Source: Streptomyces sp. SCUT-3 (lineage in GTDB: Bacteria; Actinomycetota; Actinomycetes; Streptomycetales; Streptomycetaceae). From it: a stretch of DNA of 64,000 bases. The DNA is taken from the NCBI RefSeq assembly GCF_014083985.1, contig NZ_CP046907.1, positions 4,626,501 to 4,690,500 on the forward strand. The letters are read 5' to 3'. Of this stretch, positions 798 through 55,007 are shown one piece after another. A program made the position numbers and the translations under genes. Every line of letters begins with the position of its first letter. Position 1 is the first letter of the stretch. The notes under the pieces were generated by a model. The model saw only the letters and a list, made by a program, of their open reading frames with translations, had not been told where the DNA came from and ran no database searches.

Positions 798-852
798 GGC
801 CGCGGGCCGCGGGCCGTGGGTGCGGTGTACGGGGTGCGGGGCGCGGGGCCCG

Positions 853-1719: not shown

Positions 1720-1814
1720 CCAAGCAGCGGGTCGCCGGCCACCGCCACCGAATTGAACCCGGGCGCGGGCGGGCCCGGCGCGGCGTGCGGGGCGGGGGGA
1801 GCGTCTCCGGAGCG

Positions 1815-1852
1815 GTTAAAGAACGCTCGTTCTTGACTGATTGTTCTTTAAC
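1815..1852. promoter_or_regulatory. Nested inverted repeats overlapping the TetR promoter (candidate operator)
   Basis: Two palindromes are visible. AAGAACG-ct-CGTTCTT (1819-1834) has 7-bp perfect arms. A wider pair, GTTAAAGAAC (1815-1824) and GTTCTTTAAC (1843-1852), has 10-bp perfect arms. The shared GAAC/GTTC half-sites fall on a plausible -35 hexamer TTGACT (1833-1838), which is 18 bp from TACGGT (1857-1862). A TetR dimer bound here would block its own promoter. The site also lies upstream of the divergent GNAT gene. Confidence 0.7.
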
Positions 1853-1869
1853 TCTGTACGGTCATGGAC

Positions 1870-2355
1870 ATGGGACGACCACGCGCCTTCGACACCGATC
1901 GGGCCGTCAGTGCCGCGGCTGCCCTCTTCGCCGACCGCGGCTACGAGGGCACTTCGGTGGACGACCTGGTCACCGCCACCGGTGTCCACCGGGGCAGCCT
2001 CTACAAGGTCTTCGGCTCCAAACGGGGCCTGCACCTGGCCGCCCTCCGCAACCACCTCGACCACGAGATCCACCCGCTCACCACCGCGGTCGCGACCATC
2101 ACCGACCCCGCGCAGGCGCTGGCAGCGGCCATCGCCTCGTACGACAACGGCCCGGCCCCCGGGCTCCTCCTCCTGGCCGCCGCCGAACGCGCCCCCCACG
2201 ACCCGGAGGTCGCCGCACTGGTCGCGGAAGGCATCGCCGCGCTGGAAGCCGCCCTGCGTCCCTCCCACGGCGACGAGGCCCCCCGACTCGCCTCCACCGT
2301 CCTCGGCACCCGCCTGCGCATGCGCGCCCGGCCGACCACCCCCAAGGAGCACTGA
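1870..2355 (+). CDS. TetR/AcrR family transcriptional regulator
   Basis: A protein of 161 residues. The N-terminal 50 residues form a clear TetR helix-turn-helix: GRPRAFDTDRAVSAAAALFA, then TSVDDLVTATGVHRGSLYKVFGSK. The C-terminal ligand domain is short (about 110 residues against the usual 130-150). Two ATGs are possible, at 1864 and 1870. The second is preferred because the family usually begins MGRP/MARP and because the promoter at 1833-1862 would start transcription at about 1868-1870 with no Shine-Dalgarno sequence, which implies a leaderless mRNA. The operator at 1815-1852 suggests autorepression. The stop is one base from the ATG of the next gene, so the two are probably cotranscribed. 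Confidence 0.88.
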   Translation: MGRPRAFDTDRAVSAAAALFADRGYEGTSVDDLVTATGVHRGSLYKVFGSKRGLHLAALRNHLDHEIHPLTTAVATITDPAQALAAAIASYDNGPAPGLLLLAAAERAPHDPEVAALVAEGIAALEAALRPSHGDEAPRLASTVLGTRLRMRARPTTPKEH

Positions 2356-2356
2356 C

Positions 2357-2716
2357 ATGGCGCTGATCTCGATCGACCGCGAACGCGGCCTGCTGATCGC
2401 CGAATTCCAGGGACTCGACAAGCTCTGGAGCCTCAAGAGCCGTCTGGAAATCCCCCTCGCCCACGTGCGCGGCGCCACCCACGACCCCGGCATCGCCCGC
2501 GAACCGAAGGGCATCCGGGTCGGCGGCACGTACCTCCCCGGGGTGATCACCGCCGGCCGCTTCCGCCGCGACGGTGAACGCCTCTTCTGGGACGTGAAGA
2601 ACCCGGACAAGGCGGTCGTCGTCGAACTCGCCGACGCCGAGAGCTACGACCGCCTCGTCATCGAGGTCGACGATCCCCGCGCCACCGTGGCCCTGATCGA
2701 ACGGTCCCTCGCCTGA
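2357..2716 (+). CDS. Conserved small PH-like protein paired with TetR
   Basis: A protein of 119 residues beginning MALISIDRERGLLIAEF. It is rich in beta-strand, with the pattern SRLEIPLAHVRGA ... GTYLPGVITAGRF ... LFWDVKNPDKAVVVEL. That resembles the small bacterial PH-like domains found as orphan proteins in many Streptomyces and other actinomycetes. There is no signal peptide or membrane segment. The start codon lies one base after the TetR stop, so expression is probably coupled to and controlled by that regulator. The function is unknown; a role in binding a small molecule or lipid is only a guess from the fold. Confidence 0.7.
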   Translation: MALISIDRERGLLIAEFQGLDKLWSLKSRLEIPLAHVRGATHDPGIAREPKGIRVGGTYLPGVITAGRFRRDGERLFWDVKNPDKAVVVELADAESYDRLVIEVDDPRATVALIERSLA

Positions 2717-2790
2717 GGCCGAAGCGCGGCTCCCGGCCCGGACGCCCCTCCGGGCGGTCCCGTACGCATCCGCCGGCGAACGGCCGCGTG

Positions 2791-2836
2791 CCGGGGGACC
2801 GCGCGCCGGGGGACCGCGCGTGTCGGCCCCCGGCGC
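2791..2836. repeat. 15-bp tandem duplication and GC hairpin (possible terminator)
   Basis: The 15-bp unit CCGGGGGACCGCGCG occurs twice back to back (2791-2805 and 2806-2820). The second copy contributes to a hairpin, GCGCCGGGGG (2803-2812) with CCCCCGGCGC (2827-2836) and a 14-nt loop. It lies 90 bp after the PH-like gene and could end that transcript. Confidence 0.45.
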
Positions 2837-2952
2837 ACGGCGGCCCGGGGTGAAGGTGGTCCCGGCACCCAGGACCCAAGCACCGGGACGGGAGCGTGCC
2901 GTTCCGTCCCCCCGACCGCCCCGTGTGCGGGGCACCCAGGAGGTTCGGACCC

Positions 2953-3918
2953 ATGCAGCACGCACGCGCCCGGCGCGCCGTACTCGGCCTGTCCGCCGCC
3001 CTCGCCCTCGCCCCCGTCGCGGCCTGCGGGCAGAGTGGCCCCCCGGCCCCGGAAACCCCGGCCGCGAAGGCGCCGGCCGCGAAGGCCCCGGCCTCCCCGT
3101 CCGCGGGGGCGGCGGGCCGGGAAGCGGCCGCGGAACCGTTCGTCCGCGAACTCGAGGACCTGGAGCGGAAGTTCGACGCGCGGCTGGGCGTGTACGCCGT
3201 CGACACCGGCACCGGGCGCGAGGTGGCCCACAACGACGGCGAGCGGTTCCCCTACGCCTCCACGTTCAAGGCGCTGGCCGCCGGCGCCGTGCTCGACAAG
3301 CACTCTCTGAAAGGCATGGACAAGGTCGTCACGTACTCCCGGGACGACCTGGTCGCGCACTCGCCGGTGACCGAGAAGCACGTCGGGACCGGGATGACCC
3401 TGGACGAGCTGTGCGAGGCCGCCGTCCGCTTCAGCGACAACACCGCGGCCAACCTGCTGCTCGACGAACTCGGCGGCCCCCGGGGCCTGGACGCCGTCCT
3501 GGAGGAGATCGGCGACGACGTCACCCGGGCGGAGCGCCGCGAGCCGGAACTGAGCCGATGGGTCCCGGGCGAGACGCGGGACACCACCACCCCGCGGGCG
3601 CTGGCCGGGGACCTGCGCGCGTTCGTCCTGGGGGACGTCCTCGGCAAGGACGAGCGGGCACGGCTCACGAAGTGGCTGCGGACCAACGTCACCGGGGACG
3701 ACCTCATCAGGGCCGGGGTGCCCGGGGACTGGGTGGTGGGCGACAAGACCGGGACCGGCAGCTTCTACGGCGCCCGCAACGACATCGCCGTGGTGTGGCG
3801 GCCCGGTGCCGCCCCCGTCGTCATGGCGATCATGTCGAACCGCAAGGAGCGGGGGGCCGAGCCCGACGACCGGCTGATCGCGGAAGCGGCGTCCGTGGTG
3901 GCCGACGCCCTGTCCTGA
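2953..3918 (+). CDS. bla: Class A beta-lactamase, lipoprotein
   Basis: A protein of 321 residues with the full class A signature: S103-T-F-K106 (the Ser70/Lys73 pair), S161-D-N163, E197 in EPELS (Glu166) and K265-T-G. The residue equivalent to Asn170 is Ser here. The N-terminus is a lipoprotein signal ending VAAC, with Cys25 as the likely lipidation site, followed by an Ala/Pro/Lys linker. The enzyme would therefore be anchored on the outer face of the membrane and hydrolyse penicillins or cephalosporins by acyl-enzyme attack. ATG 2953 is chosen because AGGAGG (2938-2943) sits 9 bases upstream; an upstream in-frame extension has no such site. The gene appears to stand alone, with no BlaI/BlaR partner nearby. 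Confidence 0.93.
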
Positions 3919-3975
3919 CGGGCGGGCGGGCCCTGTCCGGGCGGGCGGCGTCACGGGCGGGGTGGCGGGTCGGGG

Positions 3976-4251
3976 TCAGCGGTCCCGGGCGTACCGGCAC
4001 AGGTACGCCCACACCAGCTCGCCGAGCCGCCGGTCGCACGGCCCGCACAGGTACATCGGGGCGTGCGAGCCGTGCGCCTGCACCGGGCCGGCCCACGCCA
4101 CCGGCCGGTCGACCGCCTCGCACCGCCAGCACAGGCCGGTGGTCCAGCCGGGCCGGCCGGCGGGGTGCTGCCGGGAACGGGCGCGCGGCGGTGCGGGGCG
4201 GCGGGGGCCGGTCGTGCCGGTCGTGCCGGTCGGGTCAGTCGGGTCAGTCAA
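3976..4251 (-). CDS. Small Cys-rich (CxxC) protein
   Basis: A protein of 91 residues with a Pro/Thr/Arg-rich N-terminus and two spaced CxxC pairs, CWRCE and CGPCD, that look like one zinc-ribbon site. The only in-frame start is TTG at 4251, overlapping the last codons and stop of the ATP-binding gene, so translation would be coupled. Small Cys-rich proteins in this position are common beside Streptomyces ATP-binding/XRE/DUF397 clusters. The function is unknown. The TTG start and low-complexity N-terminus keep confidence moderate. Confidence 0.5.
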   Translation of the reverse strand: MTDPTDPTGTTGTTGPRRPAPPRARSRQHPAGRPGWTTGLCWRCEAVDRPVAWAGPVQAHGSHAPMYLCGPCDRRLGELVWAYLCRYARDR

Positions 4252-4780
4252 GGGAGAACTCCGCCCACACGGTCTTGCCGGGAGCGCCCCGGCGCGGCGC
4301 GACCGCCCAGCGGGTGGCGAGGCAGGAGACGAGGACCAGGCCGCGGCCCGACTCGGCCTCGGGGCAAGGCGCGGCGGGGGCCGTCGGGGAGGCCGCCCTC
4401 TCGGCCCGGCCGTCGCTCACCTCGACGCGGACGGCGGCCGGGGACGCGGTCAGGAGCAGGTGGAAGCCTCGTCCGGGCACGTGCCCGTGGCGCACCGCGT
4501 TCGCGGCCAGTTCGGCGGTCACCAGCGTCACCGCGTCATTGGTGCCGGAACCGTACGGGAACCCCCAGCCGTCCAGCCGGTGCGACACCAGCCGCCGCGC
4601 CAGGCGCGCCCCGCGCGGGGTGGAGGTGAACCGCATCGCGAACTCGCGGACGGGGGAAGGCGCGGAAGCGGGGGAGGGGGAGGGCGCGGGCTCCGGCGCG
4701 GGGGGCGCGGCGGCGGCCGTGCGCGTCCGCCCGTACGGGGGGATCTCGGTCGGCATGCGTACGAGCCTGGCGGCGCACAC
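4244..4780 (-). CDS. ATP-binding (HATPase, anti-sigma-like) protein
   Basis: Up to 178 residues. The C-terminal 130 residues carry a GHKL/HATPase fold of the SpoIIAB/RsbW type: VTAELAANAVRHGH is the N-box helix, VRVEVSDG the G1 strand, and ESGRGLVLVSCLA the G2 loop. Such single-domain proteins bind ATP and act as anti-sigma-like switches; in Streptomyces they sit in whiJ- or abaA-like clusters with XRE and DUF397 genes, as here. The start may be GTG 4780 or ATG 4756 (MPTEIPPYG), and neither has a strong ribosome-binding site. The gene is divergent from the XRE gene at 4938 with a 157-bp shared control region. Confidence 0.82.
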   Translation of the reverse strand: MCAARLVRMPTEIPPYGRTRTAAAAPPAPEPAPSPSPASAPSPVREFAMRFTSTPRGARLARRLVSHRLDGWGFPYGSGTNDAVTLVTAELAANAVRHGHVPGRGFHLLLTASPAAVRVEVSDGRAERAASPTAPAAPCPEAESGRGLVLVSCLATRWAVAPRRGAPGKTVWAEFSLD

Positions 4781-4937
4781 CCGCCCTGACCAGCGGATCC
4801 GCTGCTACGGATCATGACTGTAGGAGCGCCTTCGGTGTGTTGTCGGGTCCGTCGGCCGTGTCCGTCGGCCGGGCGCTCGTTGAACCGTCGGGGGCCGCAC
4901 GGGGACGCGGCCCGGGCACGACGGAGGTGTGGGGGTC

Positions 4938-5774
4938 ATGACCGGTACGGCACGGCCGGAGCAGGCGGACGGGGAGGGCTCGGGAGCCTTTCTGAAGTGC
5001 TTCGGCAGGCAGTTGAAGCTCTTCCGGGAACGCGCGGGCCTGACACAGGCGCAGCTGGGTGCGCGGCTGGGGTACGGCGAGGACATGGTGTCCGCGGTCG
5101 AGCAGGCCCGCCGCATCCCGAAGCCGGAACTGGTCGACAGGGCCGACGAGGTGCTGGAGGCGGGCGGCGTCCTGAGCGCGATGAAGGAGGAGGTCGCCCG
5201 GGCCCGGTACCCGTCGTTCTTCCGGGACGCCGCCCGCCTGGAGGCAGAGGCCGTCGAACTGCACGTCTACGACACTCATTTGGTCAACGGGCTGTTGCAG
5301 ACCGCGGAGTACGCACGGGCGATGTTCACGATGCGCCGGCCGATGCTGGACGAAGAGGTCGTCGAGCAGCGGGTGACGGCACGACTGGCCCGCCAGGAAA
5401 TCTTCGACCGGCGGCCCGCACCCGCCTTCAGTTGCGTCATCGAGGAGTCCGTGTTGAGACGCCCGCTCGGCGGGAGCGAGGTCCTGCGGGGACAACTGGA
5501 GCACCTGCTCCTGGTCGGCCGCAGGCGCAACGTGGAGATCCAGGTCATGCCGCTGAGTCGCGAGGACAACGCGGGTATCGACGGTCCGTTCACCGTGCTG
5601 ATTCCCAAGGGGGGAGAGCAGCTTGCCTATGTGGAGGCGCAGGGCCGGAGCGTCATCATCACGGCCCGGGACGAGGTCCGCCGCATCGTCTCCCGGTATG
5701 GAATCATCCGAGCCCAGGCTCTCACTCCTCGGGAGTCGCTGGCCTTCGTCGAGAAGTTGCTGGGAGACCCATGA
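4938..5774 (+). CDS. XRE-family regulator with DUF5753 domain (WhiJ-like)
   Basis: A protein of 278 residues. Residues 20-75 form an XRE helix-turn-helix (FGRQLKLFRERAGLTQAQLG ... EDMVSAVEQARRIP). The remainder is DUF5753, with the recognisable HVYDTHLVNGLLQTAEYARA and the C-terminal YGIIRAQALTPRESLAFVEK. ATG 4938 is chosen because GGAGG (4923-4927) is 10 bases upstream; a GTG at 4929 is too close to that site. The stop overlaps the DUF397 start by ATGA. WhiJ-type proteins of this family control development in Streptomyces together with a DUF397 partner. The target of this paralogue is unknown. Confidence 0.88.
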   Translation: MTGTARPEQADGEGSGAFLKCFGRQLKLFRERAGLTQAQLGARLGYGEDMVSAVEQARRIPKPELVDRADEVLEAGGVLSAMKEEVARARYPSFFRDAARLEAEAVELHVYDTHLVNGLLQTAEYARAMFTMRRPMLDEEVVEQRVTARLARQEIFDRRPAPAFSCVIEESVLRRPLGGSEVLRGQLEHLLLVGRRRNVEIQVMPLSREDNAGIDGPFTVLIPKGGEQLAYVEAQGRSVIITARDEVRRIVSRYGIIRAQALTPRESLAFVEKLLGDP

Positions 5775-5974
5775 ACACCGAAGCGCCCCGGGCACGTACG
5801 GAGCAGGCCTGGTTCAAGAGCAGTTACAGCGGTGGTGAAGGCGGTCAGTGCGTCGAGGTGGCGGCTTCCCCCGGCACCGTCCATGTGCGGGACTCCAAGG
5901 ACAGGACGGGGCCCGTCCTGTCGTTCACGGCGGACGAGTGGGCCGCGTTCGTGGAGTTCGCCGCGCGGGGCTGA
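5771..5974 (+). CDS. DUF397 protein, copy 1 (BldB/WhiJ-partner family)
   Basis: A protein of 67 residues with all of the DUF397 signature: WFKSSYSGGEGGQCVEVA, then VHVRDSKD and the C-terminal FTADEWAAFVEFAARG. It overlaps the XRE stop by ATGA, so the two are translationally coupled and probably form a pair. In Streptomyces these small proteins modulate the partner XRE regulator; BldB belongs to the same family. The last 94 bases around the 3' end are identical to copy 2 at 6196-6402. Confidence 0.9.
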   Translation: MNTEAPRARTEQAWFKSSYSGGEGGQCVEVAASPGTVHVRDSKDRTGPVLSFTADEWAAFVEFAARG

Positions 5975-5998
5975 ACCGTCAGTGAGCGCGACGCCTCG

Positions 5999-6199
5999 GT
6001 GTCGGTGACGAACGGACACCGGGGTGTCGTGTTTCAGTTCGAGCGGACTTCAGGTGAGCATCTTCTCGCCTTCCTCGGCAATTCGGCCGGACGGGAAGAG
6101 ACCCGCGCCATCGCTTCATGGCATGGAATCATCCGGGCACAGGCTCTCGCCCCGCGGGAGTCGTTGGACCTCATTGAAAAGCTGCTGGGAGAGCTATGA
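5999..6199 (+). pseudogene. Remnant of a duplicated XRE/DUF5753 gene (C-terminal tail)
   Basis: A 66-codon open frame whose last 40 codons match the end of the intact XRE/DUF5753 protein: GREETRAIASWHGIIRAQAL against ARDEVRRIVSRYGIIRAQAL, followed by APRESLDLIEKLLGEL. There is no helix-turn-helix and no body of DUF5753. The first 25 codons match nothing in the window. It lies directly before the second DUF397 gene and overlaps it by ATGA, just as the intact pair does. The frame may still be translated to couple the downstream gene, but the protein is a stump. Confidence 0.75.
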
Positions 6200-6402
6200 G
6201 GATCGAGGAATCCATGCAGACCGGACCGATACTGGCGTGGTTCAAGAGCAGCTACAGCGGCGGTGAGGGCGGGGACTGCGTCGAGGTGGCGGCTTCCTCC
6301 GGGGCCGTTCACGTGCGGGACTCCAAGGACAGGACGGGGCCCGTCCTGTCGTTCACGGCGGACGAGTGGGCCGCGTTCGTGGAGTTCGCCGCGCGGGGCT
6401 GA
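6196..6402 (+). CDS. DUF397 protein, copy 2
   Basis: A protein of 68 residues, LAWFKSSYSGGEGGDCVEVA then VHVRDSKD and FTADEWAAFVEFAARG, differing from copy 1 mainly in its first 15 residues. ATG 6196 overlaps the stop of the XRE remnant; an internal ATG at 6214 (MQTGP) is a possible alternative. It has lost its own full XRE partner, so it may now work with the regulator at 4938 or have become independent. Confidence 0.85.
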   Translation: MRIEESMQTGPILAWFKSSYSGGEGGDCVEVAASSGAVHVRDSKDRTGPVLSFTADEWAAFVEFAARG

Positions 6403-6407
6403 ACCGC

Positions 6408-6443
6408 CGGAGCCGCCCGGGGACGGGTCCCCGGGCGGCTCCG
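6408..6443. terminator. Strong hairpin between DUF397 copy 2 and the helicase gene
   Basis: Perfect 16-bp arms (6408-6423 and 6428-6443) with a 4-nt loop CGGG. It lies 6 bases after the DUF397 stop and 27 bases before the end of the convergent helicase gene, so it can act in both directions. Confidence 0.85.
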
Positions 6444-6469
6444 CGCCGCGGTGCGGTCCGGCGGCCGGG

Positions 6470-9400
6470 CTACCGCACCGCGGTGATGCGGCCGGAGGAG
6501 CCGGTGAGCATGCCCCGGTCGTACAGCTCGGCGACGTCGGCCTCCAGGAGGGCGCGGACGTCCTTGGTCAGGCGCTTCCAGCCGAAGAACTCGCAGGTGC
6601 ACCGGACCAGTTCGTCGCGGGACATGCCCGGGCACTCGGCCGCCAGTTCGTGGAGGGCGAGTTGCCGCTCGGCCGGGGCTATGTGGCCGAGCTTGCGCGG
6701 GGTGCCGTCGCCGTGCTGCCTGGCGCGCAGCCCGTCCCCGCCGGCCGCCGCGACGAAGTCGCCGTCGATGCCCACCGCGCCCGCCCGTGCCATGCCGCGC
6801 AGCACGGTTCGGATGTTCTCGCGGATCCTGGGGCCGGCCTTGGCCACGCCCCAGGCCGTGCGGGCCCGCAGCACGAGCAGTTCCTCGTGCACGGGGCCCT
6901 CGGTCCGGACGATCCCGCGCAGGAGGCGCTCCAGGGCGGGCCGCGCCTCCGCGGTGTGCAGTTCGTACGGGGAGGCGACGGTCCCCTCGTACGTTTCGTA
7001 CGGGGTGCTCCACAGGCGTTCCGGTGCGGCCACGGGCACCCGCTCGTGCTGCACCGGCACCTGCACCTGCGCCTGCACCGGGCCGCGCGGCGCGGGGACG
7101 GCGGGCTCCGTGGCGGCCCGGTCCGGCGCGGAGCCGCCGCCCGGTGCGCCCGCCGCGGCCTCCGGCGTCTCCGCCGCGGCCCCCGCGTCCGCCGTTCCCG
7201 GTGCGGCTGCCGGGGGAGCCGTCGCGGCGGTCGGCGGGCCGGCGGCGATCGCCTGCTCCACTGCCTCGCGCAGCCGCTGCTCGGCCGCCTCCCGGCCGCG
7301 GTACCAGTCGGTGCCCCAGATGCGGTGCAGCCGCCAGCCGAGGCCGACCAGGACCTGCTCGCGGAGCCGGTCGCGGTCGCGGGCGGCCTTGGAGGAGTGG
7401 TACATCGCCCCGTCGCACTCGATGCCCAGGGCGTAGGCGCCGGGGGCGGCCGGGTGCCGCAGGCCGATGTCGATGCGGTACCCCGCGACGCCGACCTGCG
7501 GCTGGACCCGGTGGCCCCAGCCCTTCAGCACCTCGATCACGGACTCCTCGAAGGGGCTGTCCGGTTCGGCGTCGCCCTGGACGAGGTCCCGGGCGAGGAC
7601 GGCGGGGCCGTTCTCCGCGTACTCCAGGTACCGCTTGAGGTGCTGGACGCTCTCGTTGGTGCTGTCGGCGAGGCCGTTGCCGTGGAAGGAGGCGACGACC
7701 TCCATGCGGTAGCGGGCCCGGGTGACGGCCACGTTCAGGCGGCGCCAGCCGCCTCCCTTGTTGATGGGGCCGAAGTTGAGGCCGAGCCTGCCGTGCTCGT
7801 CGGGGCCGTAGCCGATCGACATGATCATCACGTCGCGCTCGTCGCCCTGCACCGATTCGAGGTTCTTGACGAAGAAGCCGTCGAGCCGGTCCTCGGTGAA
7901 GCAGTGGTTGAGGTCGGGGCGGCGCAGCCGGGCCTGTTGGACGGCCTGGTCGATGGCCGAGGCCTGGGCCTGGGAGAGCGCGACGACGCCGAGGGTGCGG
8001 CCGGGGCGGGTGTCGAAGTGGTGGATGACGCGCTCGGCGACGAACTCCGCCTCGGCCCGGTTGTCGCGGCGGCCGCCCCGGTCGTAGACGCCGTCGGCCT
8101 TGAGGAAGGCGACGCCGACGTCGTTGCCCTCGTCAAGGGCGCCGGGGAAGGTCACCATGGAGTTGCCGTAGAACGAGCGGTTGCTGAAGGTGATCAGGTC
8201 CTCGTGGCGGCTGCGGTAGTGCCACAGCAGTTGCAGCTCCCGCAGCGCGCCGGCCTTGCAGGCGTTCAGCAGCGACTCGAAGGAGTCGGGGACCGCCTCG
8301 TCGTAGGAGTCGGAGTCGTCCTCGACGGAGGAGTCGAAGAACGAGGTGGGCGGCAGCTGCTTGTCGTCGCCCGCCACGACGAGGGAACGGCCGCGGTAGA
8401 TGCAGTTGACCGCGTCGGCGGGGCGCACCTGCGAGGCCTCGTCGAAGATCACCACGTCGAACTCGTAGTCCGCGGGGAGGAACTGGCTGACGGTCAGCGG
8501 GCTCATCATGAAGCACGGTTTGACCGCCTGCACGGCCCCGCGGGTGCGGCCGAGCAGTTCGCGCACCGGCATGTGCCGGGTCTTCTTCTCCGCCTCCCGG
8601 GTGATCACCCTGACGTCCCCGCCGCCGGAGCCGCGGGGCCTGCGGCTGTTGCACGCCTCGATGACGGCCCGGTGCGCGGCGTCGACCAGGTGGCGGTCGG
8701 CCTCCTGGAATTCCTCGACGCGGGCGTCGAGGTCGGCGGAGCGGGTGGTGCGCAGCCTGTCGTCGGTGGCGAGCAGGTCCTCCGCCCACGCCTTGAGCAG
8801 CGCCTGCTCGACGACGTCGGGGAGGCACCGCGGGTCGACGCCGCGCTCGGCCGCCCGGGGCACCAGCTCGTCGGCGGCGTGGCGGGCCAGCACGGCGAGA
8901 CCGTCGCGGTGGGCCTGCCACTCCTCCGGGCCCCGGCGGTCGGCGAGGAGGCCGTCGACGACCTGCTGGGCCTGCTCGAAGCCGCCCAGCAGCAGGGGGG
9001 ACAGCCGGGTCCTGCGGGCGGTGTCGAACAGCCCGCCCAGCGCGGTGGCGGCCTCGGACCAGCGGGCGGCCCGCTTCTCCGCCGCGCCGCACCAGGCCGC
9101 CAGGCTCTCCCGGGCGCTGCGGGCGAGCAGGGCCGGCAGGCCGTCGGAGTCGGTGCCGTCGGCCAGGTGGGCGGCCTGCCGCTCCCGGTCCCCGGCGCCG
9201 CGGGTCAGCTGCGCGATGCGGTCGGCGGTGGCCAGAGCCTCGTCCAGGGCGGGCAGGTCGTCCTGGGACCGCGGGGTCCAGCGGTCCAGCAGGGGCGCGT
9301 GCTCCTGCGCCAGGCGCGCCACCTCGGCGGCGGCCTCCTGCCAGGCCAGGGCCTGCTCCAGCCGCCCGGGCAGCGACTTGTGCCAGGCCCCGTCACGGGC

Positions 9401-11449
9401 CAGCGCGGCCACGGCCGCCCGGTCGGTCTTGAACTGTGCGGAGAACCGGGCCATCAGGCCGCGGTGCTGCTCGGCGAAGCGCCGGACCAGCCCGGGCAGG
9501 CCGTCGGCGGTGAGGACCTGCTCGCCGAAGGCGTCCCCGGCCGCGGCCCGCGCGCCGGCCTCGGCGTCGAGGGCCCCGCGCATCTCCTGCGCCGCCCGGT
9601 GGGCCCGGTCCAGGGCTCCGGCGCCGAACCACGCCGCCGGAGGACGCCGGACGGCCGAGGCCAGGTCGGCCAGTTCGAGGAGCGCGAACGCATCCTCGGG
9701 GGCCTCCGGTTTCGGCATGCCGAGCAGGTCGGCGAGCTGGGCCAGGGCCCCGGACAGGTCCTCCGGCAGGGCGGTGTCCGGCGCGGGGACGTCGTCCGGC
9801 AGCCCGGCGCGCAGGGTCCGGACGAGCTGCTCGACCTCCTTGGCCGTGCGCGGTTCGCCCAGCGCCGCGGGGAAGGGGCGCCGCCCGGCGGCGGTCCGCA
9901 CGGCCTCCAGCGCGTCGGCCGCCTCCTCCGCCACGGAGATCGCCGAGGCGCCCGTCAGGCCGCGCCAGGCGAACCCCTCGCCCTCGGCCGCCGGACGCCA
10001 GGCACGGGCGACGGCCCCGGCGGCGGTCAGCAGCTCCTGCAGCACCCCGGCGCTCAGGCCGCGTGCCGCCTTCGCGTTCCCGGCGCTCAGCGTCAGCTGC
10101 GGCGTGCCCTTCTGCTCCAGGAGCACCAGCCGGCCCAGGACGTCGTGCAGGGTGCGTCCGAGCGGTTCGCGGACCGCGTTCATCGCGGCGGAGTAGGCGG
10201 ACAGTTCCTCGCGCAGCCTGCGGGCCCGGTCCAGCTCGTGCTCGGCCGCGCCGGTCACCGGGACCTCGGTGGTCAGCACCCGGGCCAGTTCCGTGGCGAC
10301 GCCCTTCTTGGAGGTGTTGCCGCTGTGCAGGGCCATGACGAAGTCGCCCAGGCCCACGCCGTGCAGGCGGTTGCGGACCACGTCCAGCGCCGCCGCCTTC
10401 TCGCTGACGAACAGCACGCTGCGGCCCGCGTGCATCAGGGCGGCGATCATGTTGGTGATCGTCTGGCTCTTGCCGGTGCCGGGCGGGCCGCTCATCACGA
10501 ACGAACGCCCGTCCAGGGCGGCGGCCGTGCACTGGCGTTGCGAGGCGTCCGCGTCCAGGACCAGCGGCGTGCGCTCGGGCAGCTGGACCTCGTCGATCAG
10601 CTCCGGCGCCACCGGCTCGAAGCCGATCAGGTCCTCGGGCAGGCCCGCGTCGGGGCCCAGCGCGACGGCCCGCACCAGCGGGTGCGCCAGGATCCTCTCC
10701 TCGTTCTGCTGCAGGTCCTGGTACATCGCCTCCTTGTGGGAGGCGAACAGGCCGAGCACCACCCGCTCGTCGACCGACCAGCCGGCCCTGGCCGCGGCGA
10801 CCCCGCGGGCGGCGGCGAGCACGGCGCGCGGATCGGCCGCGTCCGCGCCGGCGACCGGCGACCAGTCGACGTCCAGCCGCTCCAGCTTCACCGCCAGCGC
10901 CGGGTTGAGGATCCGGTCCTGGCCCTCGGCCGGGTGCAGCCGGGTGCGCCCGCGGCCGTCCCGCCGCAGCTCGACGGGGACGAGCAGCAACGGGGCGGAG
11001 CTGCACTCGTGGGCGCCCTCCTCGCGCCAGTCCAGCATGCCGACGCCCAGCCACAGCACCCACAGGCCGTAGTCGTTGAACATCTGCCCGGACTTCTGCC
11101 GCAACTGGTACACGGCCGCGTCCAGCGACGCCCGGGTGGTCTTCTGCGTCACCAGCCCGGACTGCCGTTCCCGGGGCTTCTTGTCGAGGCGGACGCCCCC
11201 GTCCTCCTCCGGCTCCTCCTCGACCGGGGCGAAGTCCCAGCCCCTGGCCAGGCCGGAGAGCACGGCCGCCGCGTCCGGGGACCTGAACTCCAGCGTGGAG
11301 GTCCTGGTGTGCTGGAAGTTCAGCAGACGGTTGCGCCCGCCCATGTCGAGCAGGGAGTTGCGCCAGTCGGCCAGGACGGCCTTCAGCCGGTCGAGACCGG
11401 GATCGCTGGTGCCGGGGCGCGCGGTGCCGGTCGTCGGCCGGTTGGGCAT
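6470..11449 (-). CDS. DUF4011 / SF1 helicase / Vsr-like nuclease / DUF3320 protein
   Basis: A protein of 1659 residues, one of the longest in the window. Order of parts: N-terminal DUF4011-like region (WRNSLLDMGGRNRLLNFQ, about residues 25-300); UPF1/DNA2-type superfamily-1 helicase with Walker A GPPGTGKS near 320, Walker B FDEAS near 1000, then GDDKQLPPT and the late motif VAVTRARYR near 1240; a PD-(D/E)xK nuclease of the Vsr/MTES_1575 kind near 1290-1400 with YRIDIGL and ECDG; and a C-terminal DUF3320-like region (about 1520-1655). All key motifs look intact. ATG 11449 has GGAGGT 10 bases upstream. From memory, this architecture has been reported among single-protein anti-phage systems. Duplex unwinding coupled to cleavage of foreign DNA is inferred. 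Confidence 0.9.
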   Translation of the reverse strand: MPNRPTTGTARPGTSDPGLDRLKAVLADWRNSLLDMGGRNRLLNFQHTRTSTLEFRSPDAAAVLSGLARGWDFAPVEEEPEEDGGVRLDKKPRERQSGLVTQKTTRASLDAAVYQLRQKSGQMFNDYGLWVLWLGVGMLDWREEGAHECSSAPLLLVPVELRRDGRGRTRLHPAEGQDRILNPALAVKLERLDVDWSPVAGADAADPRAVLAAARGVAAARAGWSVDERVVLGLFASHKEAMYQDLQQNEERILAHPLVRAVALGPDAGLPEDLIGFEPVAPELIDEVQLPERTPLVLDADASQRQCTAAALDGRSFVMSGPPGTGKSQTITNMIAALMHAGRSVLFVSEKAAALDVVRNRLHGVGLGDFVMALHSGNTSKKGVATELARVLTTEVPVTGAAEHELDRARRLREELSAYSAAMNAVREPLGRTLHDVLGRLVLLEQKGTPQLTLSAGNAKAARGLSAGVLQELLTAAGAVARAWRPAAEGEGFAWRGLTGASAISVAEEAADALEAVRTAAGRRPFPAALGEPRTAKEVEQLVRTLRAGLPDDVPAPDTALPEDLSGALAQLADLLGMPKPEAPEDAFALLELADLASAVRRPPAAWFGAGALDRAHRAAQEMRGALDAEAGARAAAGDAFGEQVLTADGLPGLVRRFAEQHRGLMARFSAQFKTDRAAVAALARDGAWHKSLPGRLEQALAWQEAAAEVARLAQEHAPLLDRWTPRSQDDLPALDEALATADRIAQLTRGAGDRERQAAHLADGTDSDGLPALLARSARESLAAWCGAAEKRAARWSEAATALGGLFDTARRTRLSPLLLGGFEQAQQVVDGLLADRRGPEEWQAHRDGLAVLARHAADELVPRAAERGVDPRCLPDVVEQALLKAWAEDLLATDDRLRTTRSADLDARVEEFQEADRHLVDAAHRAVIEACNSRRPRGSGGGDVRVITREAEKKTRHMPVRELLGRTRGAVQAVKPCFMMSPLTVSQFLPADYEFDVVIFDEASQVRPADAVNCIYRGRSLVVAGDDKQLPPTSFFDSSVEDDSDSYDEAVPDSFESLLNACKAGALRELQLLWHYRSRHEDLITFSNRSFYGNSMVTFPGALDEGNDVGVAFLKADGVYDRGGRRDNRAEAEFVAERVIHHFDTRPGRTLGVVALSQAQASAIDQAVQQARLRRPDLNHCFTEDRLDGFFVKNLESVQGDERDVMIMSIGYGPDEHGRLGLNFGPINKGGGWRRLNVAVTRARYRMEVVASFHGNGLADSTNESVQHLKRYLEYAENGPAVLARDLVQGDAEPDSPFEESVIEVLKGWGHRVQPQVGVAGYRIDIGLRHPAAPGAYALGIECDGAMYHSSKAARDRDRLREQVLVGLGWRLHRIWGTDWYRGREAAEQRLREAVEQAIAAGPPTAATAPPAAAPGTADAGAAAETPEAAAGAPGGGSAPDRAATEPAVPAPRGPVQAQVQVPVQHERVPVAAPERLWSTPYETYEGTVASPYELHTAEARPALERLLRGIVRTEGPVHEELLVLRARTAWGVAKAGPRIRENIRTVLRGMARAGAVGIDGDFVAAAGGDGLRARQHGDGTPRKLGHIAPAERQLALHELAAECPGMSRDELVRCTCEFFGWKRLTKDVRALLEADVAELYDRGMLTGSSGRITAVR

Positions 11450-11514
11450 GCGGGTGTTACCTCCACGGGGCGGAACGTGCCACGGGGTGGTCCGTCCTGA
11501 AGGTCCCCCCGCAC

Positions 11515-11527
11515 GCTGATTATCAGC
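11515..11527. promoter_or_regulatory. Small inverted repeat upstream of the helicase gene
   Basis: GCTGAT-T-ATCAGC is a 13-bp palindrome 66 bases upstream of the helicase start, in an AT-richer patch (11510-11580) that probably holds its promoter. No regulator can be assigned. Confidence 0.35.
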
Positions 11528-11656
11528 AGAAGTCGCCCGCTGCGTCGTGAACTTAGTCTACCGATACCACTTCGTTGTCACGGGCCGCCTGCCGCGCCGA
11601 CCGACGTGCAGGCGTGCGTGCCGGTCGGTCGGGTGCGGCGAGTGCTGTTCGGTGGT

Positions 11657-12199
11657 TCAGCGCAGAAGGTCGTCCGGCCCACGGGAGATGCGGTGCAGGT
11701 GACGGCCGCCCTCCGCCATCGCGTGCAGCAGCCGGTGCCCTTCCGCGGCTGTGACCAGGCCTCCGACGACCGCCTCGCCCATGAGGTCGAAGGTCTCCCG
11801 GGTGGTGATGTACCGCCGCCGCGCGAAGGCACCTGCCGACCTGTCGTCCGTGATCCACACGGAGTCCCGGAACTCCGCCCGTAACGTGATCAGCACACAG
11901 GTCTCCGCCTCGCCGAGATGCTGGGTCGGTGCGGCCGCGCTGCCGCCGAAGACCGCCCGGCGGACCCGGTCGACCTCTGCCACCTCCGCCTCGTCGCTGA
12001 TCTCGACCGGCTCGCCCAGCCAGCCTGCTTCGGGGACGCCGCGCAGCCGCGGGTGGTAGGCGGCCGACCGCCCGGCCTCGTGGGCGACTGCCTGGGTCCA
12101 GCGGCCCCGGCCGTCGAGCACCTTCTCCAGAAGGGGGAGGCGGTCGACGGCCGCGAAGTTGCACAGCGCGGTGTTGTCGGGGAACCACCATGTCCTCAT
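11657..12199 (-). CDS. PIN-like nuclease, probable toxin, with a TTA codon
   Basis: A protein of 180 residues. MRTWWFPDNTALCNF opens like a PIN ribonuclease strand with Asp8. Further acidic residues sit at Glu41 (AVAHEAG), Glu99 (AETC) and Asp118/Asp119 (ITDDRSAG), the spacing expected of a PIN metal site. The ATG at 12199 overlaps the stop of the ImmA/IrrE gene (ATGA), so the two form one operon. Codon 106 (11882-11884 on the plus strand) is TTA, which in Streptomyces is read by the developmentally regulated bldA tRNA. PIN proteins next to XRE-ImmA peptidases occur as toxin-antitoxin-like pairs; toxicity here is inferred. Confidence 0.7.
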   Translation of the reverse strand: MRTWWFPDNTALCNFAAVDRLPLLEKVLDGRGRWTQAVAHEAGRSAAYHPRLRGVPEAGWLGEPVEISDEAEVAEVDRVRRAVFGGSAAAPTQHLGEAETCVLITLRAEFRDSVWITDDRSAGAFARRRYITTRETFDLMGEAVVGGLVTAAEGHRLLHAMAEGGRHLHRISRGPDDLLR

Positions 12200-13389
12200 G
12201 GCTGGAAGACCAGGTCGCCTTCTTCGAGTTCCTCGAGGCCGACCGCCGAGGCCGGGCCCGTCGGCCCGGCCGGATCCAGCAGGTCGTGCAGCCGGTCCAC
12301 CTCCACGTCGAGCAGGGCGGCGAGCGGGCGCAGCGTCGTGTCGCCCTGCCGGTACGCCTCGAACAGCTCGGACGCGACGCGGACCGGGAAACGCTTCGCG
12401 CAGGCCCACGACTCCTGCCGCTGGTACTCGGTCCACGAGCCTGTAAGCATGTGGCAGCTCTCGGTGCTCATGCGCCGGTAGCGGTTCCGCTCCACCGGGC
12501 CGACGAGGCCGAGCTGATGGAGACGGGCGGCCAGCGCGCTCGGCGACACCTTGAATTGCACGACCATCTCCTGGAACGCCTCGTCCGACAGAGCCCCTCC
12601 ACCGTCCGCCGCGGCCCGGAAACGCTCCTCGACCTCGTCGGCGGACATCAGCAGGTGGGAGGCGAAGACGTTCGCCCGGATCTCGGTCAGGCCCTTCTGG
12701 CGGCCCGGCGCGAGGTGCGCCTCGGCGAGCAGGTCCTGGGCGTCCCGGGCCAGGATGTGTCCGATCTCGTGCGCCAGGGTGAACCGCTGCCTGGTCCACG
12801 TGCGTGTGGGCCGCAGCAGTACGAGCCTGAACCTCCCGGTCTGCCAGGCGAGACCGTCCGCTCCGCGCGGCAGCTCCTCGGTCGCGATGTCGACCCCGAA
12901 GCACTTCTCGAGGGCGGTGACCAGCATGTCGCTGCTCTGCTCCGCGGGCGAGCCGAGGCCGGCCCGGCGCAGTCGTGCGAGCGCCTCCGTGGCGAGCCTG
13001 TCGCCCTGGTCGACGAAACGGGGGAGGTCTTCCCGCGCTCCGGGCACCTCGGGCAGTTCCCGGGAGCGTCCCAGCAGCTCCAGCACTTCGTACGCGTCGG
13101 TGAACCGGCGGGCCACGGCCTCCAGAGTCACCCTGTCCGGTGCCGGGGCGGAGCGGGTGCGGGCGGCCACCGCGGGTCGAAGCGGTTCACGACCTGTGAG
13201 GATCCAGTCCACGGTCGTGCCGCCCGCCTCAGCGATCAGCGCCAGGTCGAGAGAGGTGAAGCGACGCACGCCCTTGAGCGACTTGGAGAGTTTGTCGGGG
13301 GTCAGGCCGACCCTCCCGGCGAAGACGGCCTGGCTCACCGAAGCCGTGTCGATGACTCTTCGTACACGGTCGATCACGGAGTCGTCCAT
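12196..13389 (-). CDS. XRE regulator fused to ImmA/IrrE metallopeptidase
   Basis: A protein of 397 residues. Residues 5-65 form an XRE helix-turn-helix (VSQAVFAGRVGLTPDKLSKSLKGVRRFT). The middle carries the gluzincin motif HEIGH (207-211) in RFTLAHEIGHILARD, with ANVFASHLLM supplying the usual downstream helix of COG2856/ImmA peptidases. A C-terminal region of about 100 residues follows. ImmA/IrrE proteases cleave repressors or sense metal and stress to relieve repression. ATG 13389 is chosen because GGTGGGG lies just upstream and the family starts right before the helix-turn-helix. It is the first gene of the operon with the PIN gene and is preceded by the palindrome at 13410-13424. Confidence 0.85.
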   Translation of the reverse strand: MDDSVIDRVRRVIDTASVSQAVFAGRVGLTPDKLSKSLKGVRRFTSLDLALIAEAGGTTVDWILTGREPLRPAVAARTRSAPAPDRVTLEAVARRFTDAYEVLELLGRSRELPEVPGAREDLPRFVDQGDRLATEALARLRRAGLGSPAEQSSDMLVTALEKCFGVDIATEELPRGADGLAWQTGRFRLVLLRPTRTWTRQRFTLAHEIGHILARDAQDLLAEAHLAPGRQKGLTEIRANVFASHLLMSADEVEERFRAAADGGGALSDEAFQEMVVQFKVSPSALAARLHQLGLVGPVERNRYRRMSTESCHMLTGSWTEYQRQESWACAKRFPVRVASELFEAYRQGDTTLRPLAALLDVEVDRLHDLLDPAGPTGPASAVGLEELEEGDLVFQP

Positions 13390-13409
13390 GGCCCCACCAT
13401 AGGCGGGGC

Positions 13410-13424
13410 TTGCGAATATCGCAA
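13410..13424. promoter_or_regulatory. Palindrome TTGCGA-ATA-TCGCAA, candidate operator of the XRE-ImmA/PIN operon
   Basis: Perfect 6-bp arms with a 3-bp centre, 21 bases upstream of the start codon, inside a stretch (13400-13460) clearly richer in A/T than its surroundings. The symmetry and size suit an XRE dimer, so autorepression by the adjacent XRE-ImmA protein is the simplest reading. Confidence 0.6.
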
Positions 13425-13553
13425 TACTGGGGATGTTGGGAATGTTCTGTCCGGGATTGTTCAAAGAGGTCCAGGAACACCGGGCGGTGCTGTCCGCGGC
13501 GATTCGGGGGCGGACCTGAGGGTGGGGCACGAGAGGCCGGGCGCTCGCCCGGA

Positions 13554-13590
13554 CGCCCCGGCGGCCGGTGGTGAACCGGCCGCCGGGGCG
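13554..13590 (-). terminator. Hairpin downstream of the FAD oxidoreductase gene
   Basis: Perfect 16-bp arms (13554-13569 and 13575-13590) around a 5-nt loop. It lies 39 bases beyond the stop of the minus-strand gene that ends at 13629 and also shields the XRE-ImmA promoter region from read-through. Confidence 0.8.
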
Positions 13591-13628
13591 CCGTGCGTCC
13601 GACGTGCGCCGGGCCGTGCCGGGCGGGG

Positions 13629-14906
13629 TCAGGCCGCGGTGGGGACGGGGCGGGGGAGGGCCGGGAGGGGCGGGGTGACGCCCAGGTCGCGCAGGACCTG
13701 TTCGGCCGCGCGCCGGCCGGAGTCCAGCGCGCCCTGCGCGCTGCTGGTGTCGCGGTGGTCGCCGCACACGTACAGGCCGGCCAGCAGCCGCACCGGGCGG
13801 TGCATGTCGTGCGGTGCGCTCATCGACGGGAGTGCGAACGGGTCGTGACGCACCGACAGCAGCTGCCAGTCCCGGGTGGAGACGCCGTACAGGGCGGCGA
13901 GCCGGTCGCGCACCGTCCGGTCGAGCTCGGCGTCGCCGGTGTCGCCGCGGGGGCCGAGGAGGGTGGTGGTGACCAGGGTGCCGCCGCCGGGCGGCACCCT
14001 GGACGGATCGACCTCGCCGGCCGCCAGGGTGCGGCCGACCGGCCCCCGGCGGGCGGCCTCCAGGACCAGCGCGGGACCGTACGGCGGCGGGGAGCCGGCG
14101 GCGTGGTGCACCACGGTGACCGGGAGGAACTCCGGCACCCGCAGTCCCGGCAGCAGCCGTGCCGCCGCCCGTGCGTCGGTGGCGACGACCACCGCGCGGC
14201 AGGAGATGCGCCCGTGCTCCGCGGTGGTCACCGAGTCGGTGGCGACGGCCGTGGCGCACACCCCGAGCCGAATCGTTCCTGCGGGCAGCCCGGACGCCAG
14301 GAGCTCGGGCACCGTCGCGGCGCCCCCGGAGGGCATGCACAGGCGGCCGCGCGCGTAGCGGCGCAGGGCCAGGTCCGCGCAGCGGCTCGAGGTGGTCAGG
14401 TCGGGGTCGTGCAGCAGGGCGGTCAGCAACGGACGCAGGTAGCCGTCGGCCGTCCGGGGCGAGAGGCCGCGGGCCAGCGGGACCCGGGCGGCGGTCGTCT
14501 CCGGGCGGGCCAGCAGCCGGTGCTCGGGGACGGCGGTGATCCGCCCGAGCACGGCGTTCAGCCGCGCCCGGTCGATGGCGTCGCCGATGCGCCGGCCCGC
14601 CCTCCCCCCGCCGTCCCCCGCGCTGTCGCTGCTGCGGACGACCGGCCCGGCGGCCAGTGGCAGCAGCCGCAGCTTCTCCAGTCCCGACGGCTGTTCCGCC
14701 CCGGCGAAGGAGGCGTCGAGCAACTGGCCGCCCCGGTCCAGGCGGTAGCCGTCGACGGTGTCCGTGGCCATCCGGCCGCCCACCTCCTGCGAGGCCTCCA
14801 CGACGATGACCGAGACACCGGCGGCCACGAGATGGTGGGCCGTGCGGAGGCCGGCGAGACCTGCGCCCACGACGACGACGTCCGTGTGCCGTGCAGATAA
14901 GAGCAC
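13629..14906 (-). CDS. FAD-dependent oxidoreductase (amine oxidase/phytoene desaturase-like), TTA codon 3
   Basis: A protein of 425 residues. Residues 8-40 are a Rossmann FAD site (VVVVGAGLAGLRTAHHLV ... VVEASQEVGGR), and the C-terminal LAGLYVCGDHRDTSSAQGALDSGRRAAEQ is the second FAD-contact motif of the amine oxidase/protoporphyrinogen oxidase superfamily. The substrate is unknown. GTG 14906 is chosen because GGAGGAG ends 4 bases upstream; the upstream in-frame extension is low-complexity. The third codon (14898-14900 on the plus strand) is TTA, so full expression should need bldA tRNA, tying the gene to development or late growth. A 17-bp palindrome lies 33 bases upstream. Confidence 0.82.
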   Translation of the reverse strand: MLLSARHTDVVVVGAGLAGLRTAHHLVAAGVSVIVVEASQEVGGRMATDTVDGYRLDRGGQLLDASFAGAEQPSGLEKLRLLPLAAGPVVRSSDSAGDGGGRAGRRIGDAIDRARLNAVLGRITAVPEHRLLARPETTAARVPLARGLSPRTADGYLRPLLTALLHDPDLTTSSRCADLALRRYARGRLCMPSGGAATVPELLASGLPAGTIRLGVCATAVATDSVTTAEHGRISCRAVVVATDARAAARLLPGLRVPEFLPVTVVHHAAGSPPPYGPALVLEAARRGPVGRTLAAGEVDPSRVPPGGGTLVTTTLLGPRGDTGDAELDRTVRDRLAALYGVSTRDWQLLSVRHDPFALPSMSAPHDMHRPVRLLAGLYVCGDHRDTSSAQGALDSGRRAAEQVLRDLGVTPPLPALPRPVPTAA

Positions 14907-14938
14907 GTTTCTCCTCCGAGGTCTGCTCCGTCCCCGCT

Positions 14939-14955
14939 GGGGAATTGCATTCCCC
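14939..14955. promoter_or_regulatory. Inverted repeat GGGGAAT-TGC-ATTCCCC upstream of the FAD gene
   Basis: Perfect 7-bp arms with a 3-bp centre, 33 bases upstream of the GTG start at 14906. It looks like an operator for a dimeric regulator; no cognate regulator gene is adjacent. Confidence 0.5.
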
Positions 14956-15171
14956 CCGCGGAAGGCGCCGATGCCTCGGGCCGAAGCCTTGACCCTGGCA
15001 CGGGACGGGGGCATCGGGGCGCGGACGGCCGGGCCCGCCCCCGGGCCGGGCACGGGGAGAACGGGGACGGGCGCCGGACAGGGCGGAAGGAGCCGGGGCA
15101 GGCCAGGATTGGGGGCCTGGGCGGGGGAGTCGGAGCGGGGGAGGGAGTCGGAGGGGCGTGCCGGCCGGGCG

Positions 15172-48764: not shown

Positions 48765-48782
48765 GCAGGTCTTCCGCAGCAC

Positions 48783-51418: not shown

Positions 51419-51474
51419 TAGCGAAGACCCGCCAGAAGACATTGACGCTGAAGATCCTGACACCGGGGTAATCC

Positions 51475-54979: not shown

Positions 54980-55007
54980 TCCCACGCCGATCGACTGATC
55001 GCCACAG

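What the first reader, a model, noticed from the sequence alone, without database searches (positions are those of the whole stretch)
6470..11449. Single-protein helicase-nuclease defence candidate in an accessory patch
One 1659-residue frame joins a DUF4011-like region, a complete SF1 (UPF1/DNA2-like) helicase, an intact Vsr/MTES_1575-type PD-(D/E)xK nuclease (YRIDIGL, ECDG) and a DUF3320-like tail. All catalytic motifs are present. The gene sits alone between a duplicated developmental regulator cluster and an XRE-ImmA/PIN operon. From memory, proteins of this architecture have been listed among predicted anti-phage systems, so the family is not new, but its linkage here is worth testing.
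Basis: partly seen in the sequence, partly recalled or inferred. Interest (0 to 1): 0.6.

Follow-up and report, generated by a model that had tools for sequence, protein, structure and literature searches.

The report
Accessory helicase-nuclease beside Pgl-island regulators
A bacterium of the Streptomyces family carries an intact giant helicase-nuclease of a known candidate phage-defence family, in a 12.8-kb insertion that sampled relatives lack at that spot, next to regulator genes that often accompany the Pgl phage-defence islands.

Summary
Window 6470-11449 (-) encodes an intact 1659-aa protein: DUF4011, UPF1/DNA2-like SF1 helicase with a long helical insert, Vsr-like MTES_1575 nuclease, DUF3320 tail. 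PADLOC PDC-S37 scores 1212 bits; NCBIfam anti-phage ProA 1111, below its 1500 cut-off.

It is accessory. A 12.8-kb segment (798-13628) separates two genes that lie 19-266 bp apart in 17 of 20 relatives and 1.5-4 kb apart in 3. A protein of this size class (1629-1764 aa) occurs in 18 of 297 Streptomycetaceae genomes. Catalytic residues are invariant in 69 of 69 aligned homologues. In 2 of 14 sampled orthologue loci the gene sits between pglW and pglX of a type 2 BREX (Pgl) locus.

New point: its DUF397 and WhiJ-like neighbours are recurrent Pgl-island genes. A WhiJ-like gene lies in 31 of 40 sampled pglX loci, against 5 of 67 orthologue loci without pglW. PglW is absent from the window genome.

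Most likely a stand-alone defence helicase-nuclease carried as island cargo; phage protection is inferred. The kind is known; the linkage is the interest.

The parts
6470..11449 (-). helicase-nuclease gene, 1659 aa (P0002)
10883..11353 (-). DUF4011 domain (res 33-189)
   Evidence: coordinates; modelled with pLDDT mostly above 80 except about res 81-100; Foldseek found no PDB match at E<=0.001
10460..10489 (-). Walker A GPPGTGKSQT (res 321-330)
   Evidence: identical in 69 of 69
8570..10144 (-). central insertion between helicase motifs Ia and II (res ~436-960), predicted all-helical, length-variable in homologues
8429..8443 (-). Walker B / motif II DEASQ (res 1003-1007)
   Evidence: identical in 69 of 69
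7688..8251 (-). AAA_12, second RecA-like half (res 1067-1254)
   Evidence: fold matches Ighmbp2/Upf1/Sen1/Dna2/Aquarius
7262..7552 (-). MTES_1575 Vsr-like nuclease (res 1300-1396); D1327 at 7469-7471, E1344-C-D1346 at 7412-7420
   Evidence: model matches I-Bth0305I catalytic domain 3r3p, Z 12.8, rmsd 2.3 over 95 residues
6818..6964 (-). DUF3320 / winged-helix tail (res 1496-1544)
   Evidence: wHTH assignment from PMC3710099, passages
798..13628 (.). inserted accessory segment between two genes that are near neighbours in relatives
6196..6402 (+). DUF397 gene, 68 aa; Pgl-locus companion
4929..5774 (+). WhiJ-like HTH_31-DUF5753 regulator; Pgl-locus companion
4244..4780 (-). HATPase_c_2 anti-sigma-like gene; less constant Pgl-locus companion
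11657..12205 (-). PIN-like gene (motif level only; true start about 12200)
12196..13395 (-). XRE-ImmA (Peptidase_M78) gene
15..797 (+). left flanking conserved gene (weak TPR match)
13629..15053 (-). right flanking conserved gene (amine oxidase family)

Best explanation
The gene encodes a single-protein, horizontally moving defence helicase-nuclease of the PDC-S37/ProA-like kind. Proposed working order: the UPF1/DNA2-like motor loads on DNA ends, gaps or replication intermediates and translocates; the long helical insert and the DUF4011 domain act as a clamp or sensor that decides which DNA is accepted; the winged-helix DUF3320 tail holds the DNA; and the Vsr-like nuclease cuts it. It needs no methylase of its own and serves as cargo of defence islands, among them Pgl (type 2 BREX) loci, where it would be an extra DNA-degrading effector. 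In this window it sits with regulator genes typical of such loci but without the Pgl core. Shown: domains, intact catalytic residues, predicted folds of motor and nuclease, empty-site insertion, linkage of orthologues to defence genes. Inferred: anti-phage activity, DNA as substrate, clamp/sensor roles, any control of this gene by the regulators.
For: Domains; PDC-S37 1212 bits, Hhe 583, ProA 1111. Motor fold: Foldseek E 2e-7 for Ighmbp2 and 3e-7 for Dna2; VIA-align Z 13-15 for Aquarius, Ighmbp2, Upf1, Sen1 and Dna2, 302-353 residues, rmsd 6.6-8.1. Nuclease fold: I-Bth0305I Z 12.8, rmsd 2.3 over 95. Motif residues identical in 69 of 69. Patchy: 18 of 297 genomes, own one included, with a 1629-1764-aa frame; 39 of 297 with any match at E<=1e-100. 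Empty site: flanking genes 19-266 bp apart in 17 of 20 relatives and 1529, 1546 and 3980 bp in 3, against 12,831 bp here; no match to this protein at E<=1e-10 in any of the 20 stretches, although 7 of those genomes carry the type elsewhere. Linkage: a BREX gene in 15 of 73 orthologue loci, references confirmed by PADLOC as PglW 1544, PglX 1669, BrxHI 1082, BrxD 673 bits. In G149 and G238 the gene lies between pglW and pglX of loci that also hold PglY/BrxC, PglZ and BrxD; in L001 and L032 it lies there too. None of the seven defence references hit 22 control stretches.
Against: No experiment shows protection. Scores are below the NCBIfam cut-offs for ProA (1500) and Hhe (2000). In 12 of 14 sampled orthologue loci none of the seven defence references is nearby, and 11 of the 75 loci sit at a sugar-ABC/opcA-zwf locus (the 10 of them in the tree form one clade), so many copies are not in a recognised island. 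Genomes with PglW are not enriched for this gene (4 of 18; 3.6 expected from 59 of 297). None of 40 other pglX loci holds it (the two known cases were left out of the 40). The 22 control stretches are 20 copies of one conserved locus plus 2 from the window genome, so they are a weak control. A DUF4011 gene is core in P. aeruginosa (PMC10250203, passages), so not every family member is accessory. UPF1-like helicases can act on RNA.
Confidence: 0.7

Rival explanations
1. Genome-integrity sensor that kills the cell (Hachiman-like): the helicase detects damaged or phage-replicating DNA and the nuclease degrades host and phage DNA alike. This is a rival about the outcome, compatible with a defence role.
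For: Helicase-plus-nuclease logic as in HamAB, where DNA ends activate the motor and then the nuclease (PMC12278908, passages); no methylase domain among the 20 neighbouring ORFs scanned with Pfam.
Against: Motor and nuclease are one chain here, and the motor is SF1 UPF1-like, while HamB is SF2 (recalled). Nothing in the sequence decides between selective and indiscriminate cutting.
Confidence: 0.4
2. Housekeeping DNA repair helicase-nuclease (DNA2-like) that happens to lie in a variable region.
For: Fold similarity of the motor to Dna2; a DUF4011 gene is core in P. aeruginosa.
Against: 18 of 297 family genomes carry this type, the site is empty in 20 relatives, and neighbours differ between loci.
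Confidence: 0.1
3. RNA-targeting helicase-nuclease: UPF1/Senataxin-like motor plus nuclease acting on phage RNA or R-loops.
For: Top fold matches of the motor include RNA helicases Aquarius, Upf1, Sen1 and Ighmbp2.
Against: The nuclease domain matches a DNA homing endonuclease (I-Bth0305I) and was named a Vsr-family REase, both DNA cutters.
Confidence: 0.1
4. Stripped remnant: a left-over cargo gene of a lost Pgl island, no longer useful.
For: Pgl-type regulator genes are beside it while no pgl core gene was found in the window and no PglW in the genome at E<=1e-150; another homologue in the same genome is broken up.
Against: The 1659-aa frame is intact with all motifs and gene-like codon positions.
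Confidence: 0.12

Closest known systems
PADLOC candidate PDC-S37 (PDLC05009)
   Same: 1212 bits in two stretches, the better one covering profile positions 514-1543 of 1550; best of the 10 families listed
   Different: the listing gives no cut-off or tested function; 0 papers found under that name
NCBIfam anti-phage protein ProA (NF058533)
   Same: 1111 bits; profile positions 353-1903 in the genome scan
   Different: below the 1500-bit cut-off; the model has 244 more positions than this protein has residues; 0 of 297 genomes has a match over the cut-off
Hhe (DUF4011 anti-phage protein, NF042953 / PDLC02194)
   Same: 771 and 583 bits; plasmid homologues annotated hhe at 39-40% identity over 47% of the protein
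   Different: NCBIfam cut-off of 2000 bits not reached
[quoted passage not shown] 2013, PMC3710099
   Same: SF-I helicase, MTES_1575 REase and DUF3320-overlapping wHTH (passages)
   Different: Pfam shows DUF4011 and no HEPN or transglutaminase model here
Auxiliary PD-(D/E)XK nucleases in BREX loci (PMC12839542)
   Same: nuclease cargo inside a BREX locus (section 35, part 1 of 2 read)
   Different: [quoted passage not shown] DUF4011, Vsr, WhiJ, DUF397 and DUF5753 do not occur in the main text (supplements not seen)
Hachiman HamAB
   Same: works alike in outline: helicase sensor plus nuclease effector (passages)
   Different: two proteins and another helicase superfamily (recalled); no membership claimed

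Membership tests
PDC-S37-type helicase-nuclease | score to the PADLOC model above its threshold | tested here: inconclusive
   1212 bits, best of 10 families listed; the tool shows no cut-off for PADLOC models
PDC-S37-type helicase-nuclease | DUF4011 + SF1 helicase + MTES_1575 + DUF3320 in one chain (my description of the type) | tested here: met
   all above Pfam cut-offs
PDC-S37-type helicase-nuclease | catalytic residues of motor and nuclease intact | tested here: met
   69 of 69 aligned homologues
PDC-S37-type helicase-nuclease | anti-phage activity | not testable with these tools
   needs phage challenge
NCBIfam ProA equivalog | score at or above 1500 bits | tested here: not met
   1110.6 bits; a relative of ProA, not filed as ProA
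NCBIfam Hhe equivalog | score at or above 2000 bits | tested here: not met
   770.8 bits
Type 2 BREX (Pgl) component | pglW, pglX, pglY, pglZ alongside | tested here: not met
   no pgl core match in the window; no PglW match at E<=1e-150 in the window genome
Type 2 BREX (Pgl) cargo | some orthologues lie inside Pgl loci | tested here: met
   2 of 14 sampled orthologue loci, plus L001 and L032 of the 75
Vsr-like nuclease fold | structural match to a Vsr-like nuclease | tested here: met
   3r3p Z 12.8, rmsd 2.3 over 95 residues; that I-Bth0305I is Vsr-like is recalled

The most novel reading that the evidence does not exclude
The helicase-nuclease and the DUF397 / WhiJ-like / HATPase genes form a regulated backup cassette of Pgl (type 2 BREX) islands: the WhiJ-type switch holds the nuclease silent and releases it when phage disturbs Pgl or at a developmental stage, and this window preserves the cassette after loss of the Pgl core. 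If so, the large WhiJ/DUF397 regulator families of Streptomyces would in part be defence switches rather than only developmental ones.
Probability: 0.2. Interest if true: 0.65.

Novelty: new member of a known kind. Interest (0 to 1): 0.45.

Why it matters
Single-protein DUF4011 helicase-nucleases are listed among anti-phage proteins, but my paper searches turned up no mechanism for them. This case gives an intact compact member, a clean empty-site comparison, and a place where orthologues recur as cargo: the pglW-pglX interval, which is itself variable (6-150 bp in 28 of 40 loci, 1.6-7.9 kb in 12). It also points to WhiJ/DUF397 genes, usually seen as developmental regulators, as frequent companions of Pgl defence loci in Streptomycetaceae. 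That is directly testable and bears on how defence is tied to the Streptomyces life cycle.

Tried and rejected
Opposite-strand ORF of 1745 aa over the same DNA: not taken as the gene, on codon-position G+C and the domain hits of the - strand frame; Pfam was not run on it. A partner gene conserved beside the orthologues: none found shared by all; the commonest neighbours are locus-specific. ImmA/PIN as partner: no match in 75 loci or in these plus 14 more at E<=1e-3. Genome-level association with PglW: none, 4 of 18 against 3.6 expected. Direct or inverted repeats of 12 bp or more at the island borders (600-1000 against 13250-13750): none. Phage or viral carriage: 2 partial phage records, no viral contig. 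Known fold for DUF4011: Foldseek gave no match at E<=0.001, and the VIA-align rows cover mainly residues 285-395, which leaves the DUF4011 fold open. VIA-align alone does not single out UPF1-like motors: flavivirus NS3 helicases score Z 12.5-13.4; the assignment rests on Pfam, phmmer and Foldseek as well. Relative domain placement is not trusted (pTM 0.43 and 0.55). Pgl-located members as one lineage: not supported by the tree (pglW group of 2 rows needs 2 changes). DefenseFinder 'Prometheus' as a possible name for ProA: searched, not established. Literature limits: DUF4011+DUF3320 0 papers, PDC-S37 0, DUF4011 3; subscription papers are not held. Pgl regulators in the S. coelicolor Pgl paper PMC4365076: the terms searched do not occur.

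Rows dropped: 6 of 75 loci from the motif alignment (L031, L039, L058, L061 too short; L040, L067 no frame found by my picker). Structure alignments used 55 and 54 sequences, not all 70. The empty-site test used 20 of the 26 genomes searched; gaps are between ends of best tblastn matches. In one of the 20 (L130) the TIGR01777 gene lies between the two flanking genes, and in another (L134) the amine-oxidase match is only 37% identical. The orthologue sample is 14 of 18 (own genome, G119, G021 and G041 not fetched); several of the 14 have the contig lengths of loci already among the 75. The Pgl test used 40 of 61 listed PglW places; G149 and G238 were left out because they were already known to hold the helicase-nuclease, 19 others were simply not fetched, and one of the 40 was cut to 4.2 kb by a contig end. 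In one search one 65-residue, 35% hit (L182) was not counted as the helicase-nuclease.

Full report
What is there. The frame at 6470-11449 on the - strand is intact: 1659 residues, gene-like codon positions and five Pfam families in the order DUF4011, AAA_11, AAA_12, MTES_1575, DUF3320. PADLOC's best model is PDC-S37 at 1212 bits. NCBIfam gives anti-phage ProA at 1111 bits, below its 1500 cut-off, and Hhe at 771, below 2000. So it belongs with the DUF4011 helicase-nucleases listed as anti-phage proteins, but it is not formally a ProA or a Hhe.

Anatomy. A predicted model of residues 290-1440 (mean pLDDT 80.5, pTM 0.43) matches UPF1-like helicases: Foldseek E 2e-7 for Ighmbp2 and 3e-7 for Dna2; VIA-align Z 13-15 for Aquarius, Ighmbp2, Upf1, Sen1 and Dna2 over 302-353 residues, rmsd 6.6-8.1, with flavivirus NS3 helicases not far below at Z 12.5-13.4. 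The nuclease part (protein residues 1298-1402) matches the catalytic domain of homing endonuclease I-Bth0305I, Z 12.8, rmsd 2.3 over 95 residues. Between helicase motifs Ia and II lies an all-helical region of about 550 residues, mostly at pLDDT 80-96. It is among the less conserved parts, and in the four longest homologues inspected (L042, L057, L066, L070) it carries extra pieces of 141 and 344-357 residues. The DUF4011 region is modelled with good confidence except around residues 81-100 but found no PDB match at E<=0.001. The DUF3320 tail overlaps a winged helix-turn-helix according to Anantharaman et al. 2013 (PMC3710099, passages), who also named the MTES_1575 nuclease a Vsr-family REase and proposed that giants of this kind act without a modification enzyme.

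Conservation. In 69 of 69 aligned homologues (38 close, 31 distant) GPPGTGKSQT, DEASQ, HYRS, Asp 1327, ECDG and YH are unchanged. This speaks for a nuclease that is needed.

Accessory status. Of 297 Streptomycetaceae genomes, 39 have a ProA-model match at E<=1e-100; 18 of these, the window's own included, have an open frame of 1629-1764 aa, 12 are longer (1880-2310) and 9 shorter (1295-1407) (grouping by frame length is mine). In 20 of 20 relatives the genes on either side of the segment, the amine-oxidase gene (13629-15053) and the gene at 15-797, lie near each other: 19-266 bp apart in 17, and 1529, 1546 and 3980 bp in 3 (one of these rearranged, one with a 37% amine-oxidase match). Here they are 12,831 bp apart. 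None of the 20 stretches holds a match to this protein at E<=1e-10, though 7 of the 20 genomes carry the type elsewhere. That is an empty-site comparison for the segment 798-13628. No integrase was seen among the 20 ORFs scanned and no border repeat of 12 bp or more, so how it entered, and in how many steps, is unknown.

Where orthologues live. 75 loci came from one capped scan of species genomes (358 stretches encode a relative, the best 80 were kept). None shows the amine-oxidase side of the window. Eleven of the 75 sit at a sugar-ABC/opcA-zwf locus, and the ten of them in the tree form one clade. Fifteen of 73 have a BREX gene among PglW, PglX, BrxHI, BrxD; PADLOC confirms those references. 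In the sample of 14 orthologue loci from the 297 genomes, two (G149, G238) have the gene between pglW and pglX and the other 12 have none of the seven references. The G149 and G238 loci also hold PglY/BrxC, PglZ and BrxD, with BrxHI shown in G149. In 26 of the 30 best-scoring pglW loci pglX begins within the 1.5-kb flank; in one (G149) the helicase-nuclease does, and in 3 neither. Across 40 loci fetched for the next test (most of them among those 30 or the next-ranked) the pglW-pglX interval is 6-150 bp in 28 and 1.6-7.9 kb in 12, none of them holding the helicase-nuclease: the interval is a variable slot, and this gene is one of the things that can fill it. At genome level there is no association with PglW (4 of 18, 3.6 expected).

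The regulators next door. The window gene is followed, 67 bp away and convergent, by a DUF397 gene, then a WhiJ-like DUF5753 regulator, then an HATPase gene. The DUF397 and WhiJ-like pair lies downstream in the same relative orientation in pgl-linked loci L001, L032, L053, L146 and L151 and in L022, the sister of this protein in the tree (support 99), at 57-70% identity; the HATPase is seen in L032, L151 and L022. I then fetched 40 pglX loci: a WhiJ-like gene (half or more of its length, any identity) is present in 31, within 1 kb of pglX in 24; DUF397 is in 30, the HATPase in 21; at 50% identity or more the WhiJ-like gene is in 13. For comparison, a WhiJ-like match by a looser E-value limit occurs in 5 of the 67 orthologue loci that have no pglW match (L003, L022, L028, L040, L064), in none of the 12 sampled orthologue loci without pgl genes, and in none of 22 control stretches, 20 of which are copies of one conserved locus. 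Among the 8 orthologue loci with a pglW match, 4 have it. So these regulators go with Pgl loci in general, and their place here, beside the gene but with no pgl core gene in the window and no PglW in the genome, suggests that this segment descends from, or exchanged parts with, a Pgl island. Against this: in L022 unrelated genes fill the space between gene and regulators, L003 has a similar WhiJ gene about 8 kb away on the other side, and the regulators clearly do not need the helicase-nuclease. A genome-wide background was not measured.

What it does. Family, intact motor and nuclease, patchiness, and position in Pgl loci of some orthologues point to phage defence by DNA cutting. PMC12839542 reports PD-(D/E)XK nucleases as the commonest auxiliary nucleases in BREX loci (section 35, part 1) and proposes that PglZ nicks may signal auxiliary effectors to degrade phage DNA further (passage); that fits this gene as cargo. 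Whether cutting is selective or kills the cell (as in Hachiman, PMC12278908, passages) cannot be told from sequence.

Verdict. A new, intact member of a known kind in an accessory segment, with a testable link between Pgl loci and WhiJ/DUF397 regulators.

Noticed in passing
L124 (window genome C1:922000-932000), 2506-7489: A diverged homologue (29-40% identity) spread over three frames; pieces match parts of residues 22-1025 and 1432-1655, and no nuclease piece or ECDG motif was found on its strand.
   Followed up: partly
L125 (window genome C1:1870000-1884000), 4486-9063 (-): A 1525-aa intact distant relative with GPPGTGK, DEASQ and VECDG motifs, 27% identical over residues 974-1382.
   Followed up: partly
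L194-L233 (40 Pgl loci): The pglW-pglX interval is filled with 1.6-7.9 kb of other DNA in 12 of 40 loci; what fills it was not examined.
   Followed up: no
window 2896-3918 (+): Class A beta-lactamase gene inside the inserted segment.
   Followed up: no
window 20975-21048 (+): ARAGORN reports a tRNA-Pro(CGG) antisense within the sucB-like ORF 19479-21302; the ORF start or the tRNA call is doubtful.
   Followed up: no
window 45600-48800 and 50800-55000: Two stretches with G+C near 0.66-0.68 against 0.74 for the window; five proteins from them hit no PADLOC model.
   Followed up: partly
L008, L009, L012, L013, L015, L019, L020, L025, L031, L037, L038: A second landing place of the gene, between sugar-ABC transporter genes and opcA-zwf-tal.
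   Followed up: partly
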